Source of the DNA: Akkermansia sp.
GTDB taxonomy: Bacteria; Verrucomicrobiota; Verrucomicrobiia; Verrucomicrobiales; Akkermansiaceae
Assembly (NCBI GenBank): GCA_017558555.1
Contig: JAFYUJ010000069.1
Location: 1 to 64,000 of the forward strand
Direction of reading: 5' to 3'
DNA length: 64,000 nt
The notes below the pieces were generated by a model, which was not told where the DNA came from, ran no database searches, and saw only the letters and a program-made list of their open reading frames with translations. Shown piece by piece: positions 38,938-46,860 of this stretch (position 1 is its first letter; each line of letters opens with the position of its first letter). Both the position numbers and the translations under genes were made by a program.

Positions 38938-40347
38938 ATGAGCGATTCTAACTATATTTATGACAATGTGAACCAGTATCTGGAACTGGGCGCAAGCATC
39001 TACAGCCCGGCCATGTACCTGGGCGTGGGCTTGCCTCCGTACTGGATGCAGGCTGCTGCCTATACTCCGGTGTCCGAGACCGCCGGCATCCTGAGCGCAG
39101 AAGATACTGAAGCCCTGGTGCGCAGCTGCACCACAGAGGAACAGCGCGCTACGCTCGAAGAACAGGGTGTTGTGGATTTCATCGCCACCGCTCCGGTGGG
39201 CAAGTATCATGCCTATATCTACAAGCAGGAGAGCGGCTATCTGCTGATTCTCATGTGGCTGCATGTGGCTCCTTTCCTGAAGCAGGGTATTGATTGCGGC
39301 TGCTCCGATGTTCACCTGCCGTCTGCTTGCCCTCCCTCCTGGCGCCGATATGGTTCGCTGCTCCCCATCTGGGAGGGCGCACCCGTGCTGACCAAGTATG
39401 ATACCGAAGCCCTGGCCGATTCCTTCCTCAACGAAAAAGAATGGGAACGCCTGCGCGAGAAGGGCGACGTTGACTTCGCTTATCAGAATGACCTGGGCCG
39501 CTACCGTTCCTCTGTTGTCTCCCAGCGCCTTGGCTATGATTTGTGCTTCCGCATCATCAATAGCCGTATCCTGAGCATGAAGGATATCAACCTGCCGGAA
39601 GAATACGTGGTGCCGCTCACCCGCTTTACCAACGGCCTGATTCTGGTGACGGGTTCCGTGGGCTCCGGTAAGTCCACCACGCTCGCCTCCATCATTGATT
39701 TCATCAACGAGGACCGTCGCGACCACATCATTACGATGGAAGACCCCATCGAAGCCATTTTTGAAACCAAGGGTTGCCAGATTAACCAGCGTGAGGTGCA
39801 CAAGCACACCGAATCCTTCGGCCGTGCGCTCCGCGCCGCCCTGCGTGAAGACCCGGACGTCATCATGGTAGGTGAAATGCGCAACCTGGAGACGATTTCT
39901 CTGGCGCTCACCGCCGCAGAAACCGGTCACTTGGTGTTGGGTACCCTGCACACCGGCTCCGCCGCTCGTACCATTGACCGTATTCTTGATGCTTTCCCCG
40001 TAGAAGAACGCGAACACATCCGCATCATGGTGTCCGAATCCCTGCGTGGTGTGCTTTCCCAGCAGCTCGTGCCCAAGAAGGACGGTACCGGCCGAGTGAT
40101 GGCACTGGAAATGCTCGTGAACACCGCTGCTGTGGCCAACTGCATCCGCGAAGGTAAGACTTTCATGATTCCCGGTCTCATTCAGACCGGCAAGGCCCAG
40201 GGTATGCGCCTGATGGATGACTCCCTCCAGGAGCTGTATCTGAACGGTGTCATCAGCGCAGAAGAGTGCAACACCCGCGCTACGGATAAGATGATGATGG
40301 AGAAATTCCTGGCAGATCACCCCGAGCCCGCTCCCGCACAAGCCTGA
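38938..40347 (+). CDS. PilT/PilU-type retraction ATPase with duplicated N-terminal domain
   Basis: 469 residues. The motor half has Walker A GSVGSGKST near 237, the Asp box IITMEDPIEAIF, Walker B LREDPDVIMVGEMRNLETISLALTAAETGHLVLGTLHTGSAART, and AIRE-like ANCIREGKT. Before it stand two tandem copies of the PilT N-terminal domain: residues about 12-105 (..PPYWMQAAAYTPVSE..GVVDFIATAPVGKYH) and about 120-215 (CSDVHLPSACPPSWRRYGSLLPIWE..GDVDFAYQNDLGRYR). A normal PilT has only one. It likely cooperates with the adjacent PilT in type IV pilus retraction. The gene could equally be called pilU-like. Confidence 0.85.
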   Translation: MSDSNYIYDNVNQYLELGASIYSPAMYLGVGLPPYWMQAAAYTPVSETAGILSAEDTEALVRSCTTEEQRATLEEQGVVDFIATAPVGKYHAYIYKQESGYLLILMWLHVAPFLKQGIDCGCSDVHLPSACPPSWRRYGSLLPIWEGAPVLTKYDTEALADSFLNEKEWERLREKGDVDFAYQNDLGRYRSSVVSQRLGYDLCFRIINSRILSMKDINLPEEYVVPLTRFTNGLILVTGSVGSGKSTTLASIIDFINEDRRDHIITMEDPIEAIFETKGCQINQREVHKHTESFGRALRAALREDPDVIMVGEMRNLETISLALTAAETGHLVLGTLHTGSAARTIDRILDAFPVEEREHIRIMVSESLRGVLSQQLVPKKDGTGRVMALEMLVNTAAVANCIREGKTFMIPGLIQTGKAQGMRLMDDSLQELYLNGVISAEECNTRATDKMMMEKFLADHPEPAPAQA

Positions 40348-40376
40348 TTCTACAACCTTTAACGATTTTTGACACA

Positions 40377-41471
40377 ATGGAAAACCGAATTGACAGATAT
40401 TTCCGCGCTTTGGTGGAGAACGGCGGTTCCGACTTGCACTTGTCGGAAGGTATGCCCCCCAAGATGCGCGTTCATGGCGATATTGAGCCCATCGAAGATA
40501 TCATCCTTACCCGCGAGGATATGGTGGAGCTCATGGAGCCCATCTGCCCGCCTAAGCTCTGGAAGGAGTTTGTGGAAGGTGGCGATGCGGACTTTGCCTA
40601 TGAAATGGACGAATCTTCCCGCTTCCGCTGCAACTACATGAAGCAGCAGCGCGGCTATTGCTGCGTGTTCCGTTTGATTCCCACCAAGATTCTCACGATG
40701 GAACAGCTCAATGTGCCCGAGCAGATTAAGCGCTTTGGCGAAATGCGCTCCGGCCTCGTCCTGGTGACCGGCCCCACCGGCTCCGGTAAGTCGACAACGC
40801 TCGCTGCTCTCATCGATTATATCAATACCAACTTCTCCCGCCACATCATCACGGTGGAAGAACCCATCGAATTCGTACACCCCTCCAAGAAGAGCATCAT
40901 CACCCAGCGCGAGGTGCCCTCCAATTGCCCCACCTTCGCCGATGGCCTCCGCGCGTCCCTTCGTGAGGATACCGACATCGTGCTCGTGGGCGAAATGCGA
41001 GACCTGGAAACCATCTCTCTGGCGCTCACCGCCGCTGAGACAGGCTTGCTCGTCTTTGGTACCCTGCACACCAACAACGCCCGCAAGACCGTCGACCGTA
41101 TCATCGACGTATTCCCCGCAGAGCAGCAGGCTCAGGCTCGCACCATGCTCGCAGGTTCCTTGCGCGGTGTGGTGGCTCAGTTGCTCATGAAGCGCTGCGA
41201 TAAGCCCGGCCGCGTCGCTGTGAACGAAATCCTCTTCGCCACGCCTGCCGTTGCGTCCATCATCCGCGAAGGCGCTACCCAGAAGCTCGCCGACGTCATC
41301 ATCGGCGGCAAGGGCATGGGCATGCAGTTCATGGACGATGCCATCTGGCAGAAGCTCCAGCAGGGCCTCGTCTCCCCGCAGGAAGCCTACATGAAGGCCA
41401 TTGATAAGGCTCGCTTCAAGAACTTCCTGCCCCCCGATCAGGCCGCCCTCGCCAACGCCGGTGGCGCTTGA
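40377..41471 (+). CDS. pilT: Type IV pilus retraction ATPase PilT
   Basis: 364 residues, the normal length. The N-terminal domain GGSDLHLSEGMPPKMRVHGDIEPIE is followed by Walker A GPTGSGKST near 132, ITVEEPIEFVHPS, ITQREVPS, and the HIS-box region GTLHTNNARKTVDRIIDVFPAEQQ. It drives pilus disassembly and twitching. It lies 29 bases after the pilU-like gene and ends in a hairpin terminator. Confidence 0.95.
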   Translation: MENRIDRYFRALVENGGSDLHLSEGMPPKMRVHGDIEPIEDIILTREDMVELMEPICPPKLWKEFVEGGDADFAYEMDESSRFRCNYMKQQRGYCCVFRLIPTKILTMEQLNVPEQIKRFGEMRSGLVLVTGPTGSGKSTTLAALIDYINTNFSRHIITVEEPIEFVHPSKKSIITQREVPSNCPTFADGLRASLREDTDIVLVGEMRDLETISLALTAAETGLLVFGTLHTNNARKTVDRIIDVFPAEQQAQARTMLAGSLRGVVAQLLMKRCDKPGRVAVNEILFATPAVASIIREGATQKLADVIIGGKGMGMQFMDDAIWQKLQQGLVSPQEAYMKAIDKARFKNFLPPDQAALANAGGA

Positions 41472-41491: not shown

Positions 41492-41531
41492 AAAAAGCCG
41501 CTTCTGAGTTTACCCTCGGAAGCGGCTTTTC
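41492..41531 (+). terminator. pilT terminator
   Basis: A long stem with arms AAAAGCCGCTTCTGAG and CTCGGAAGCGGCTTTT (one G-T wobble) and a TTTACC loop ends in TTTTCT. It forms the left flank of the inserted polyvalent-protein segment. Confidence 0.85.
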
Positions 41532-41553
41532 TCATTGTAGCCCATGCAGCGCG

Positions 41554-44500
41554 ATGTATGTGCGGGAGACTGGGTACAGCGATGCAGAGCTTTTGAAGCG
41601 CGGGTTGCTGCGCAATGCGAGCCGAAGCAAGCGCGGGGCGTTGATTGGGCGTCATGCGCGCGAGGAGCTGTGGACGCGCTTTACGAATGGTGCCATCAAG
41701 CCGATGGATGCGGAGATTATTTGCAATCTGACGAAGAATATCAAGGACCAGAGCCGCGTGGAGGAGATACAGCGACGCTGCTGCATGTTGCTGGCGGAGG
41801 GCAAGAGCTGGGATTTTATTGGCGGCATGGTGCAGCTGATGGCCAATAAGGAGAGTATCACGCTCAAGCAGGGGCTGCTGGACCTGGGCGCGGATTTTGA
41901 GGCTGATTTGGCGCGGGCTGCTGCGTGGATTGAGAAGAGCCTGGGTAAGATTAAGGAGAGTATTTCGCTGTTGAAGCAGGGCCGGAAGTTGAGCGGCAAG
42001 AAGCGCGAGGAGGCGGAGAGATTGGGGATTGTGACGGCGACGCAGGAGGGTGCCGAGGAGATGCTGCGCGATTTGGAGATGCTGCGCGGTAAGTATGAGA
42101 TGATTGGCAGTTACCCGGATTTGGTGGCGCAAGCGCAGATGTGGGATGGCAAGACGGAGGTGGACCCGGTGGGCTTGTATTTGGAGAGGGTGCAGGCGGA
42201 GCGCGAGCAGGCAAAGGCCGAGGGCGAGCTGGATGCGGATGCTTATTTGGCGGAGCAGGCGCGCAAGGCTGCGGCGGAGGCGGTGCCGGAGCTGAGTTTC
42301 AGTATGGGAGAGGCGCTGGACGTATTTTTTGAGGGTGTTCCGGGAGAAAATGGGGTGCAAGATGTACCGGTGGAGCTGCTGATGATGCAGAAGGTAGAGC
42401 CGGCAAAGAGCGTGCGGAATGCTTGGAGGTATATGAATGAAGCCGCAAAGGGGGAGAGGGCAAAGAGAAAGCCAGTGGCTGTGGTGGATAATGGGGATGG
42501 TACTTACTCGATTGTAGATGGAAATGCTACTTCATTGTCTTTGGCTGCGCATGGTGCGCAGAAGGTGAGGGTGCAGGTGGTAGGAGAGAATGCCGGCACT
42601 CGCTTAAATAATAGTGCGTATTTGGTGCAGGATGAGACGCCGGGAGCGGATGCGGATAAGCGTTTGCGCACACATGGGCTGGACGGGTTGCATGGGGATG
42701 TAGCGATGCAACGTGCTTTTGAACAAGCAGAGGAGAATATACCGCTGCTGGAGGGACTGGTACAAGCTGCCGCTGATAATGTTGGCGGCGAGGTGATGAT
42801 ACGCCCAGCTAATGATGAGAACGGGCTGGCAACAAAGAAGCCAAGCACGGCAAGAGATAAAGCAAACCGTGATTACCAGGGTGATATTTCACGCGTGGTA
42901 GATTTGATAGGTGGAACGTGTATAATGACGGCTGATGGTGATTTTGCCGATGCAATAAAGGCGATACGAAAGGCTCTGGCTACGCCGAAGTATACGGGAG
43001 CAAGTATTGCCAAGGTGAAAAAGCTTGGATTTAACACGATGGAGCCGCAGTATCGTGATGTGAAGGTGTCTGTGCGCTTTGCAAACGGAGGTATTGGGGA
43101 AATTATCCTGGTGCAGGATGTGATTAATGATGCCAAGTTTAACCGCGGCGGGCACTTGTTGTATGATGTGACGCGAGAGCTACAGCCTTATACAGGCTCA
43201 ATCAAGACAGCAGAAAATGCTTTTAATGCACTTAAAGACTTGAGTGCATTGGTGTATCAGACAGATGCTGTAGTAGACTCGGAGGCTTTTGCGCGGGCAA
43301 AATCAGTAGCTTCATCGGCATTGGAAGCTCTGAAGCCGGATTTGAAGAAATTGAGTGTTTCTTCTTTTGTGGCAACTGCCGTGAAGTCATCAGACTCTTT
43401 GCTGAAGAAAGCCAAGCCTGCTTCAGTATCTTCTGCTGCGATGCCGAGACGTTCGTTAATCCAAAACATATCCAAGGATATGATAGGGGATAAGGAGCTG
43501 GGTGTCAACAATAATTTTTCGTTCAGCATGGGTGAGGAGCGCAATCTGGCGGCGGTGCATAGTATTCCGTTGGATACAATGTTGGAAGTAGAGAAAAAGT
43601 TAGGGGGATTGCCTAAGCCGTCCATTGCTGTTACACGCTTGGATAAGCCTTATTCCTGGGGGTATTCTGAGAGAGTGTATTTGATTGGGAAGCCTGAATT
43701 AGCCGACCCTGAGCAAGGAAACTTGGTGTACGATCGTGATGCGTGGACAGGCAAGGGGCCTTTCTTGCTGGAAGGTGGAGATGCGTACGATTACCGGAAG
43801 AGTGAGTATTTCAATCCTACTCTGGAGGAGTTTGTGGCACGCACGATAAAGAAGAAGGGTATGGAGGAAGGTGGCAGTTTCAGAGGGCAGAGCGCAGTAG
43901 CTATTGGAACGATGGACGCGGTGAAAGCTCACCGCGAAAAGCTCTCCGACACTGATACATCTAACGCACAAAAGGAAGAGACAGATAAAGAGTTGGACGA
44001 GCTGATAGAGGATGTGGTAAGCCTGAACAAGAAGGGGCTGAATTATGAAGAGATATCATATCTTTTAGCAAGGGTGTGCTGGCGTTCGTCGCCTATGGCG
44101 GATGGAGCACCGTCTGAAAGGGAGGTGAGCCGTGAGCAGGCTAAAAGGATTTTGAATGAGATGGGTATCCGGGTTAAGGACATCAAAAAGCCGCTGGTGG
44201 ATAAATTTGTGAAGGCGGTAACTGGGCTTAAAAATGAGATGGAAGATTATCTGGAGTCCGTGCCGCAGCGTGCTGTAATGTTCAATGAGTTTGAATATGC
44301 CGTGATGCCGGAGTCTATGAAAGGTGCTCCCGGATTGGATGAAATGCTGGACAGAAATAACATTACGCCAATATACCACGATGGTACGGAGAAAGGCCGA
44401 CGCGCGGCGCTGGCAGGGCTTGTGAATGACAGCCGGGTGAGTTTCAGCGTGGTGGGTGAGAATGCTGCCAACTGGGAGGAGATAAAGCACCTGGCGTTCC

Positions 44501-46860
44501 GCGGGCGCGATGATGGGAAGCTGCGCGTGGAGCTGGATGCGAGCGGGGCGAAGCTGAAGGAGGGCGAGCATGGGCAAGATGCTAAGGTGCTGGCGCCGCG
44601 ATTCCGTGCGCTTGTAGGTTTTATCCACAAGGTTATCAATGATAATGGGCGCTGGAATGCGGTGGTGGCAGATTGGAAGGATAATGTGCCGAGTGTGGAT
44701 AGTTGGGAGGAGGTGAAGCTTGTGCGCAGGCTTTTAGAGAAAGCCGGCATTAAGTACAAGAGCTTGGGGGCTTTGGTAGATAGTGGGATTCTTTTGGCGG
44801 TGTTGGAGCCGACGGATGAGAGGATGGGGGCTTTCTTGGAGAAGGTGGAGGGACTGGATTCTGTGAGTGGTTTTGATAGGCTGGGGGATGTGCTGGATTT
44901 TCCGGAGTTGTACAAGGCGTATCCGCAGTTGCGCAATGTGCCAGTGTTGTGGGAAAAGGAGGCGAAGAATAGGGGGCTTACGGGGATTTCGCAGGCTACG
45001 GGCGATGTGTGGATAACGGTACGAGATGGTGAGGATGCGGAGCATACGCTTTCTACGTTGTTGCACGAGACGCAGCATGTGATACAGTTTATTGAGGGGT
45101 TTGCGATTGGCGGTGCTTCTCAGTTTGCGGATATGCGTAGATGGATGGCAGACAATGGGTATTTGGATGAGGCGTTGAGACTGACGAATGCGGAACTGTA
45201 CCATCGATTGGCGGGTGAGATTGAGGCACGGAATGTGCAGAAGCGAGCCGGATGGGATGCGAAGACGCGGCAGTATTATATACCGTTTAATGATACGTTG
45301 GAGTACCCGGGGCTGGCGATTGTGGTGCGAGCGGAGGATTTGGGGTATCCGGAGGTGACGTTTAGCATGGAGCGCAAGCGCGATTTGACGCTGGATGGTG
45401 CGAGCGCGAGCAAGGAGGAGGCGTGGGCGTATTTGGAGCAGCTGGAGTGGAAGCCGCTGGAGAATATGCGAAGTGGGTTTGTGGCGCTGGTGAATAAGCC
45501 GCAAAGGAAGGAGCTGACGGATTTGGATAAGGCGTTTAAGTCTGCCAGCAATGGGTTTTCAAGTGTGGTTCATTATGCAGCGGTATGCCGCTTGGATAAG
45601 TTGTTCCGATATGCTGTGCCGTGTGGGGAGTACGAGGATAAGAAGCATGGGGACAAGCAGGTGGTAATACACCGCTTTGCCTGCCCGCTCATGATTGATG
45701 GGGAGAGGGCTGTGGCGTGGTTGACGGCAAAGGAGACAAAGAATGTGCCAGGGAATGAGAGACTCTACAATTTGGAGCTTGTGGATATAGAAAAGCTCGC
45801 TGGTAACTTAGAGAACCTTGCGAGCCATAGGCTACAAGACGATCTCCCCGCAGCGAGCAAGGATATTGTAGCGCAGGTGGAGGAGGCTTTCAAGACTTAT
45901 TTTGAAAGTGTACCACAAAATGTGAGCATGAGTATGAGTGAGGTGGCGCAGAATGCGCTTTTGCTGCTGGAGAGCCGCCGGGATGAGCTGGAGGCGCAGG
46001 TGATTTTGGAAGATATGCAGAAAGCTTGCGAGCGGTTGAGCATTGTGCTGGCCGGAGATGATGACCCGAAGGTGGGGAACGGCTTGCAGGTGTATGCCGA
46101 GATGCAGGCGCTTATCAGCGCGACGCGCCGGTCGCTGCCGGAGAAGTATCTGCGCCAGGGGAATCTGAATGGGTTGCTGGCGTGGGCCGGAGTGTATGCA
46201 CGCATGGCGCAGACGGGGCAGATGCCGAAGCGGGGTGCCATCAAGGGAGAGATTTATGACCGCTTTGTGCGCGAGCTGAGCAAGAAAAACGAGCTGATGC
46301 AGTTGCAAGGCATGAGCGAGGCAGAGGCGCGCGAGGTGCTGATGGACCTTGGCAGCGGGAAGCTGGAGACGGCTTTCCTGAAGGTGGGGCGCGATTGTGC
46401 GCAGCGCCTGGATGCTTTCCTGAAAGACCGTGCGCTGGAGCGTATTAACTGGCTGTACAAGATGGCATACCCGAAGAGGGAGGAAGGGCAGGCCTGGACG
46501 CGAGGCAAGATGGCGAGCGATGCCTACAGGCTGGTGGAGAAGGTGATGGCCATCATTGGCCGGAGCCACGAGCAGCGCGCCAAGGTGGACGAAGAGATAC
46601 GAGAGGTGCGCCGGGAGGATGGCAAAATAAAACCCCGTAAGTGTTTAACTTACGGGGTTTTAGCGCGGACAGGGAGGGATTCGAACCCTCGGTACGCTTT
46701 TGACGTACACACGATTTCCAATCGTGCTCTTTCGACCACTCAGACACCTGCCCAGGTGCTGTTCCTTTCTTCCGTGCGGAAGGGGTGCGGACGAAGTATA
46801 CGCCAGATTGACGGGTTTTGCAAGCTAATTTTTCGAATTTATGTAATTTTTCCGAAATAA
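41554..46860 (+). CDS. Large 'polyvalent'-type multidomain protein segment from a mobile element
   Basis: Open for 1768 codons, but the last ~77 codons read through a terminator, a tRNA gene and its promoter. The meaningful part ends near 46625. Segments are separated by FSM/FSV motifs (near residues 249, 655, 962, 1270, 1457). They are (1) a helical N-terminal region; (2) a KPVAVVDNGDGTYSIVDGNAT ParB-like stretch followed by a RelA/SpoT-like region (VVDLIGGTCI, ..GEIILVQDV); (3) a LGGLPKPSIAVTRLDKPYSWG region typical of polyvalent proteins; (4) a zincin-like HETQH near 1171; (5) an LPD3-like region; (6) a helical region that stops abruptly. Such proteins occur in phages and conjugative elements. 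Codon use (GAG, GCG, TTG rich) differs from pilT. No promoter or ribosome site is seen, so it may be a fragment. Confidence 0.6.
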   Translation: MYVRETGYSDAELLKRGLLRNASRSKRGALIGRHAREELWTRFTNGAIKPMDAEIICNLTKNIKDQSRVEEIQRRCCMLLAEGKSWDFIGGMVQLMANKESITLKQGLLDLGADFEADLARAAAWIEKSLGKIKESISLLKQGRKLSGKKREEAERLGIVTATQEGAEEMLRDLEMLRGKYEMIGSYPDLVAQAQMWDGKTEVDPVGLYLERVQAEREQAKAEGELDADAYLAEQARKAAAEAVPELSFSMGEALDVFFEGVPGENGVQDVPVELLMMQKVEPAKSVRNAWRYMNEAAKGERAKRKPVAVVDNGDGTYSIVDGNATSLSLAAHGAQKVRVQVVGENAGTRLNNSAYLVQDETPGADADKRLRTHGLDGLHGDVAMQRAFEQAEENIPLLEGLVQAAADNVGGEVMIRPANDENGLATKKPSTARDKANRDYQGDISRVVDLIGGTCIMTADGDFADAIKAIRKALATPKYTGASIAKVKKLGFNTMEPQYRDVKVSVRFANGGIGEIILVQDVINDAKFNRGGHLLYDVTRELQPYTGSIKTAENAFNALKDLSALVYQTDAVVDSEAFARAKSVASSALEALKPDLKKLSVSSFVATAVKSSDSLLKKAKPASVSSAAMPRRSLIQNISKDMIGDKELGVNNNFSFSMGEERNLAAVHSIPLDTMLEVEKKLGGLPKPSIAVTRLDKPYSWGYSERVYLIGKPELADPEQGNLVYDRDAWTGKGPFLLEGGDAYDYRKSEYFNPTLEEFVARTIKKKGMEEGGSFRGQSAVAIGTMDAVKAHREKLSDTDTSNAQKEETDKELDELIEDVVSLNKKGLNYEEISYLLARVCWRSSPMADGAPSEREVSREQAKRILNEMGIRVKDIKKPLVDKFVKAVTGLKNEMEDYLESVPQRAVMFNEFEYAVMPESMKGAPGLDEMLDRNNITPIYHDGTEKGRRAALAGLVNDSRVSFSVVGENAANWEEIKHLAFRGRDDGKLRVELDASGAKLKEGEHGQDAKVLAPRFRALVGFIHKVINDNGRWNAVVADWKDNVPSVDSWEEVKLVRRLLEKAGIKYKSLGALVDSGILLAVLEPTDERMGAFLEKVEGLDSVSGFDRLGDVLDFPELYKAYPQLRNVPVLWEKEAKNRGLTGISQATGDVWITVRDGEDAEHTLSTLLHETQHVIQFIEGFAIGGASQFADMRRWMADNGYLDEALRLTNAELYHRLAGEIEARNVQKRAGWDAKTRQYYIPFNDTLEYPGLAIVVRAEDLGYPEVTFSMERKRDLTLDGASASKEEAWAYLEQLEWKPLENMRSGFVALVNKPQRKELTDLDKAFKSASNGFSSVVHYAAVCRLDKLFRYAVPCGEYEDKKHGDKQVVIHRFACPLMIDGERAVAWLTAKETKNVPGNERLYNLELVDIEKLAGNLENLASHRLQDDLPAASKDIVAQVEEAFKTYFESVPQNVSMSMSEVAQNALLLLESRRDELEAQVILEDMQKACERLSIVLAGDDDPKVGNGLQVYAEMQALISATRRSLPEKYLRQGNLNGLLAWAGVYARMAQTGQMPKRGAIKGEIYDRFVRELSKKNELMQLQGMSEAEAREVLMDLGSGKLETAFLKVGRDCAQRLDAFLKDRALERINWLYKMAYPKREEGQAWTRGKMASDAYRLVEKVMAIIGRSHEQRAKVDEEIREVRREDGKIKPRKCLTYGVLARTGRDSNPRYAFDVHTISNRALSTTQTPAQVLFLSSVRKGCGRSIRQIDGFCKLIFRIYVIFPK
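46629..46661 (-). terminator. tRNA-Ser terminator
   Basis: A perfect 14-bp stem (AAAACCCCGTAAGT and its complement) with loop GTTTA. On the minus strand it is followed by ATTTT. It lies just 3' of tRNA-Ser and marks the right boundary of the inserted segment. Confidence 0.85.
46666..46753 (-). tRNA. tRNA-Ser (GGA)
   Basis: 88 bases read on the minus strand. The acceptor arm GGGCAGG/CCTGTCC (one G-U), the anticodon stem-loop CACGA-TTGGAAA-TCGTG with anticodon GGA, a long variable arm typical of serine (GTACGtcaaaaGCGTAC), and the T-loop GGGTTCGAATCCC are all present. The CCA is not encoded. It reads TCC codons, and TCT by wobble. Confidence 0.95.
46795..46823 (-). promoter_or_regulatory. tRNA-Ser promoter
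   Basis: Minus strand TTGCAA (46818-46823), 17 bases, TATACT (46795-46800), about 41 bases before the tRNA 5' end. Confidence 0.65.

What the first reader, a model, noticed from the sequence alone, without database searches (positions are those of the whole stretch)
41532..46628. Slice of a mobile-element polyvalent protein held between two native terminators
A 5.1-kb segment with one uninterrupted frame of about 1690 codons sits exactly between the pilT terminator and the tRNA-Ser terminator. Its content (ParB-like, RelA/SpoT-like, zincin-like and LPD3-like regions, FSM linkers) is that of polyvalent proteins of phages and conjugative elements. Both ends look cut: no promoter, ribosome site or initiating domain at the left, and a helical domain that stops mid-course at the right. 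No frameshift is present, so it is either young or still selected. Codon use differs from pilT.
Basis: partly seen in the sequence, partly recalled or inferred. Interest (0 to 1): 0.8.

Follow-up and report, generated by a model that had tools for sequence, protein, structure and literature searches.

The report
Stranded cargo slice of phage protein
In an Akkermansia gut bacterium, a 5-kb gap between two host genes holds the weapon-bearing middle part of a giant protein that Akkermansia viruses appear to inject into cells; similar slices, cut at nearly the same places, recur at other chromosomal spots in related species and swap versions with the viruses' own genes.

Summary
An open frame of about 1,690 homologous codons (41554-46628) lies between the pilT terminator and the tRNA-Ser terminator. 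It carries PBECR5, LPD3, a RelA/SpoT-type domain (profile match to the toxin Tas1), a zincin motif and a weak ParB-like region. It is the interior of a 3,400-5,000-residue polyvalent protein of temperate Akkermansia phages, encoded among terminase, tail, virion-lysozyme and integrase genes. A related species has the tRNA-Ser site empty, with the same terminator. The rest of the phage gene is absent from this genome. The slice has no promoter-like site upstream, no ribosome site and no stop codon of its own, so it is probably silent. It is not a lone relic. Comparable slices occur in related Akkermansia genomes: at five independent sites they start within 32 nt of one domain junction, and five slices stop at the end of one helical domain (this one is cut earlier on the right). 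Two sister genomes carry different alleles at one site with the same left junction, and one allele is 97% identical to a full-length phage gene. I read these slices as cargo cassettes exchanged with phages by recombination, an idea raised by Iyer et al. (2017). How slices enter the chromosome is unresolved.

The parts
40377..41471 (+). pilT-like ATPase gene, left neighbour
   Evidence: orthologues in 43 of 45 genus members tested
41493..41530 (+). pilT terminator hairpin, left limit of the insert
   Evidence: 16-nt arms, 94% complementary
41554..42321 (+). N-boundary module (residues 1-256); homology to phage genes starts at 41556, two nt into this module
42409..42591 (+). weak ParB-like region
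   Evidence: PF08857 E 0.008, below cut-off
42685..43503 (+). RelA/SpoT-type domain (residues 378-650)
   Evidence: profile match to Tas1 6ox6, E 3e-6; alignment
43522..43752 (+). PBECR5 predicted RNase-fold domain (residues 657-733)
   Evidence: PF18814 above cut-off
43849..44568 (+). conserved interior segment shared with phage genes (residues 766-1005)
44821..45333 (+). zincin-like segment (residues 1090-1260), HETQH at 45064-45078
   Evidence: motif in sequence
45412..45744 (+). LPD3 domain (residues 1287-1397)
   Evidence: PF18798 E 4e-12
45883..46626 (+). C-boundary helical module (residues 1444-1691), cut short compared with other slices
46630..46660 (-). native tRNA-Ser terminator hairpin, right limit of the insert
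   Evidence: same hairpin after tRNA-Ser at the empty site in G179
46665..46753 (-). tRNA-Ser(GGA), right neighbour; attachment site of related prophages in other species

Best explanation
The segment is the cargo module of a giant polyvalent protein of temperate Akkermansia phages: N-boundary domain, variable effector domains, C-boundary domain. It sits in the host chromosome without the phage's N-terminal ~1,200-residue part, its C-terminal ~870-residue part, or any other phage gene. Shown: the phage origin; the missing outer parts; the empty site in a relative; the recurrence of slices with clustered ends at other sites; and different alleles, one of them phage-like, at one fixed chromosomal junction in sister genomes. 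Inferred: slices work as a chromosomal stock of effector modules that trade sequence with incoming or resident phages by recombination, refreshing the set of effectors the phage delivers. Also inferred: this copy is silent where it sits, because it has no promoter-like site upstream, no ribosome site and no stop codon, and its right end has been trimmed. How a slice first enters the chromosome is not explained.
For: Full-length relatives (3,429 and 3,612 aa) lie among terminase, tail, glucosaminidase and integrase genes next to tRNA-Ser. IMG/VR contigs carry forms of at least 3,800-4,900 aa. G000 has no match to the phage N-terminal or C-terminal part. In relatives the pilT and tRNA-Ser flanks lead to other genes: pilT-coaD, tRNA-Ser-miaB. 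Left ends of slices at five independent sites fall between -23 and +9 nt of one junction. Five right ends stop at the end of the same helical domain. G213 and G228 share a 96%-identical flank and the same left junction but hold different alleles; the G228 allele is 97% identical to the full-length gene in G213. The G229 slice is 94% identical over 1.6 kb to the full-length phage gene on L279, starting at its cut. G181 holds two slices with a 97.7%-identical 1-kb stretch. Phage pairs differ by swapped or inserted interiors between conserved ends.
Against: For this copy no donor phage at high identity was found (best about 75% nt), so exchange is shown only for relatives. Its right end is not at the common junction. 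No transfer from slice to phage was caught, only alleles shared with phage genes. Pieces of the C-terminal part and a few N-terminal bits also exist elsewhere, so ordinary decay also happens. Several slices are decayed (G156, G171, G193, G132). Only one genome per species was available.
Confidence: 0.6

Rival explanations
1. Ordinary prophage relic: a polyvalent-protein phage integrated at tRNA-Ser, and deletions removed everything but this part of one gene; deletion ends lie near terminators because host genes and their terminators are kept by selection.
For: Integrases of this phage type sit at the same tRNA-Ser in G206, G124, G217, G221 and G214. In G206 the gene points toward the tRNA as here. 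Seven of about 16 slices lie within 300 bp of a tRNA gene. Decayed pieces are common.
Against: The junction lies beyond the native terminator, not inside the tRNA, and no displaced tRNA copy is seen at the pilT side. Slices at unrelated sites share left and right ends at module junctions. Two slices lie on the 5' side of a tRNA and one site next to pnp has no tRNA. Alleles were replaced at a fixed junction.
Confidence: 0.25
2. Host-kept expressed gene: the slice is translated as a stand-alone effector, for example against superinfecting phages, and is maintained by selection.
For: The frame is intact over 1,690 codons. Pairwise dN/dS of this slice against relatives is 0.2-0.6. Some slices in other genomes have a purine-rich Shine-Dalgarno-like stretch before an in-frame start at the junction (G229, G181 C43, G213/G228; by eye).
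Against: In this copy no promoter-like site lies before the frame, no Shine-Dalgarno stretch precedes ATG 41554, the pilT terminator ends about 20 nt upstream, and there is no stop codon. The dN/dS values mostly reflect evolution inside phages. No PADLOC match.
Confidence: 0.12
3. Assembly or binning artefact: a phage fragment joined wrongly between pilT and tRNA-Ser in a metagenome-assembled genome.
For: The genome is a fragmented assembly of 110 contigs. In the closest genome, G171, contigs end inside a repeat after both of these terminators.
Against: The contig is 99 kb. The G171 repeat is absent from G000. The same kind of slice with the same left end is assembled independently in other genomes.
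Confidence: 0.03

Closest known systems
Phage polyvalent proteins (Iyer et al. 2017, PMC5512222)
   Same: Multidomain protein with PBECR, LPD3 and RelA/SpoT-type domains; full-length relatives are linked to virion genes and carry MuF-C.
   Different: Here only the interior module is present, alone in the chromosome, without the end parts or other phage genes.
Small open reading frames beside the large polyvalent gene of Verrucomicrobium spinosum, suggested as cassettes by Iyer et al. 2017
   Same: Separate pieces of polyvalent genes that could recombine into the main gene.
   Different: There the pieces sit next to the main gene and recombination was only a suggestion. Here the slices are scattered, span the cargo region, and a natural allele replacement is seen.
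Orphan toxin cassettes of CDI and Rhs systems (PMC3150448, PMC3967940)
   Same: Delivery part missing; toxin-bearing part kept elsewhere as a possible stock for recombination.
   Different: From general knowledge, CDI/Rhs orphans lie downstream of their main gene with immunity genes; these slices lie at unrelated sites and come from a phage protein.
jhp1044-type polyvalent proteins of Helicobacter prophages (PMC5512222)
   Same: Extreme shuffling of interior effector domains.
   Different: Shuffling described inside phage genes; no solo chromosomal slices with fixed ends are described in the passages read.

Membership tests
Polyvalent protein | several conflict-type domains in one polypeptide | tested here: met
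   LPD3 and PBECR5 above cut-off, Tas1-like domain by profile
Polyvalent protein | encoded beside virion or conjugation genes | tested here: not met
   neighbours here are pilT and tRNA-Ser; full-length relatives do meet it. So this is a piece of a polyvalent gene, not a complete member
Polyvalent protein | delivered into the cell with the DNA | not testable with these tools
   inferred only from relatives next to tail and virion-lysozyme genes
Integrated prophage | integrase and structural genes at the locus | tested here: not met
   none between pilT and tRNA-Ser
Integrated prophage | direct repeat of the tRNA 3' end at the far side | tested here: not met
   no second tRNA-Ser match on this contig among the G000 matches listed (the list was cut at weak matches)
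Recombining cargo cassette | same ends at independent sites | tested here: met
   left ends -23 to +9 nt at five sites; five right ends at one domain end; this copy meets the left end only
Recombining cargo cassette | allele exchange with the full-length gene | tested here: met
   met for the class: G213/G228 and the G213 phage gene; not seen for this copy
Recombining cargo cassette | transfer from slice into a phage | not tested
   needs strain series or experiment
Host-expressed gene | promoter, ribosome site and stop codon | tested here: not met

The most novel reading that the evidence does not exclude
Akkermansia chromosomes keep a dispersed library of phage effector modules with defined ends, moved and swapped as units between phage giant genes and chromosomal sites: a cassette system for proteins that phages inject.
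Probability: 0.25. Interest if true: 0.8.

Novelty: new variant of a known kind. Interest (0 to 1): 0.52.

Why it matters
Large injected phage proteins are known to be mosaic, but where new modules come from is unclear. Scattered chromosomal slices with shared ends, and a natural allele swap with a phage gene, would make the suggested cassette route testable in a common gut genus. They also show that a long intact frame between host genes need not be a host gene.

Tried and rejected
Single-protein pattern scans of genome contigs and viral contigs found nothing; alignment queries worked. A structure prediction of the RelA/SpoT region from one sequence was unusable (pLDDT 38), so no fold search was run; loci from the genome search were not handed to the predictor because its rule does not list them. 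Insertion by a terminator-seeking group II intron was considered, since such a repeat occupies both of these terminators in G171, but no match to it occurs in G000. Integrase-mediated insertion into tRNA-Ser was considered and judged unlikely as the direct cause, because the junction lies past the native terminator. A strict site-specific cut was considered: left ends differ by up to 32 nt, so no exact site is shown. Phage GenBank records gave mainly matches to the zincin segment. No PADLOC match.

Full report
What is there. The frame is real: 1,768 codons from ATG 41554 with no stop until 46860, while the other two + frames carry about 100 stops each. Homology covers residues 1-1691 only; the rest is read-through of the tRNA-Ser terminator and tRNA antisense. 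The insert lies between the pilT terminator hairpin (41493-41530) and the tRNA-Ser terminator (46630-46660). Its GC skew (+0.35) resembles the phage gene of G206 (+0.22 to +0.27), not the neighbours (-0.05 to -0.10). Related contigs are mostly titled Akkermansia genomes assembled from metagenomes, including sheep, water buffalo and cattle samples.

What it is. Pfam finds LPD3 and PBECR5 above cut-off. A profile of residues 378-650 matches Tas1, a toxin of the RelA/SpoT type (E 3e-6). An HETQH zincin motif is present with sub-threshold DUF6782, and a ParB-like region is sub-threshold. Full-length relatives of 3,429-3,612 aa (G215, G206) also carry MuF_C and lie among genes for terminase large subunit, tail protein, glucosaminidase and phage integrase, beside a tRNA-Ser gene. 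IMG/VR contigs carry versions of at least 3,800-4,900 aa. In these the window segment corresponds to the interior, starting near residue 1,200-1,400. G000 holds no match to the N-terminal 1,205 residues or the C-terminal 852 residues of the G206 protein.

The site. In G179 the order is esterase gene, tRNA-Ser, the same terminator hairpin, miaB: an empty site (gene names by eye from the translations). In several relatives pilT is followed by coaD. In G000 miaB and coaD lie on other contigs, so the pilT/tRNA-Ser neighbourhood has been rearranged. In the closest genome, G171, a repeat sits directly after both of these terminators; copies elsewhere also follow hairpins, and one copy is followed by an open frame that resembles a group II intron reverse transcriptase (the RT reading is by eye, and Rfam did not call the truncated ends).

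The class. Solo slices occur next to tRNA-Cys (G071), tRNA-Gln (G229), tRNA-Val (G203), fused to the tRNA-Thr 3' end (G181), next to tRNA-Arg (G084) and upstream of pnp (G213, G228), among others. Homology to phage genes starts at +2 nt (G000), -9 to -23 (G181 C43), +9 (G229), -23 (G203), -13 (G213) and -10 (G228, same site as G213) of one domain junction; G071 starts at +58 and others further in. Twelve of 15 left ends fall in a 190-residue stretch; a rough uniform model over the available span gives about 6e-9, which assumes independent slices. Right ends of G213, G084, G181 C1, G153 and G132 stop at the end of the same helical domain, while phage proteins run on. The window copy stops earlier, mid-domain.

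Exchange. G213 and G228 share a 96%-identical flank of 2.6 kb and the same left junction, then carry different alleles; the G228 allele is 97% identical to the full-length phage gene on another contig of G213. G229's slice is 94% identical over 1.6 kb to the full-length gene on L279, from its cut onward. G181 holds two slices sharing 97.7% over 1 kb. Phage pairs are near-identical at the ends and differ by swapped or inserted interiors.

Function. Selection is compatible with pairwise dN/dS of 0.2-0.6 for this slice, but those values include evolution inside phages and mosaic alignments. This copy has no promoter-like site upstream, no ribosome site and no stop. I therefore favour a silent module that can take part in recombination. 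Iyer et al. (2017) suggested such cassettes for Verrucomicrobium spinosum; the shared ends and the allele swap are further support. How slices enter the chromosome, and whether sequence flows back into phages, is not shown.

Noticed in passing
L081 (end), L149 (end), L255: In G171 a high-copy repeat follows the terminators of both pilT and tRNA-Ser; 10 copies in G171 and 9 in G167, the copies checked follow hairpins, and one copy is followed by an RT-like frame: a terminator-seeking group II intron by eye.
   Followed up: partly
L179:7515-7609: In G167 the 3' part of tRNA-Ser with its terminator lies about 160 nt after a 2,450-aa polyvalent frame, as a displaced attachment site would.
   Followed up: no
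L182 (G220:C27:21425-24891): Two tRNA-Ser copies (one partial) 3.2 kb apart with an integrase remnant beside the full copy: possibly a very small element.
   Followed up: no
L132:6235-6328 and L133:6733-6828: A 97-bp stretch 74% alike lies upstream of slices at two different sites (tRNA-Val and pnp).
   Followed up: no
L252, L253: Two IMG/VR phages share 96% of a protein of at least 4,900 aa but differ by a block of about 660 residues.
   Followed up: partly
L279: A contig titled Oscillospiraceae MAG carries the same Akkermansia-type phage gene; probably misbinned.
   Followed up: no
window 38938-41471: Two pilT-like ATPase genes in tandem, about 45% identical.
   Followed up: no
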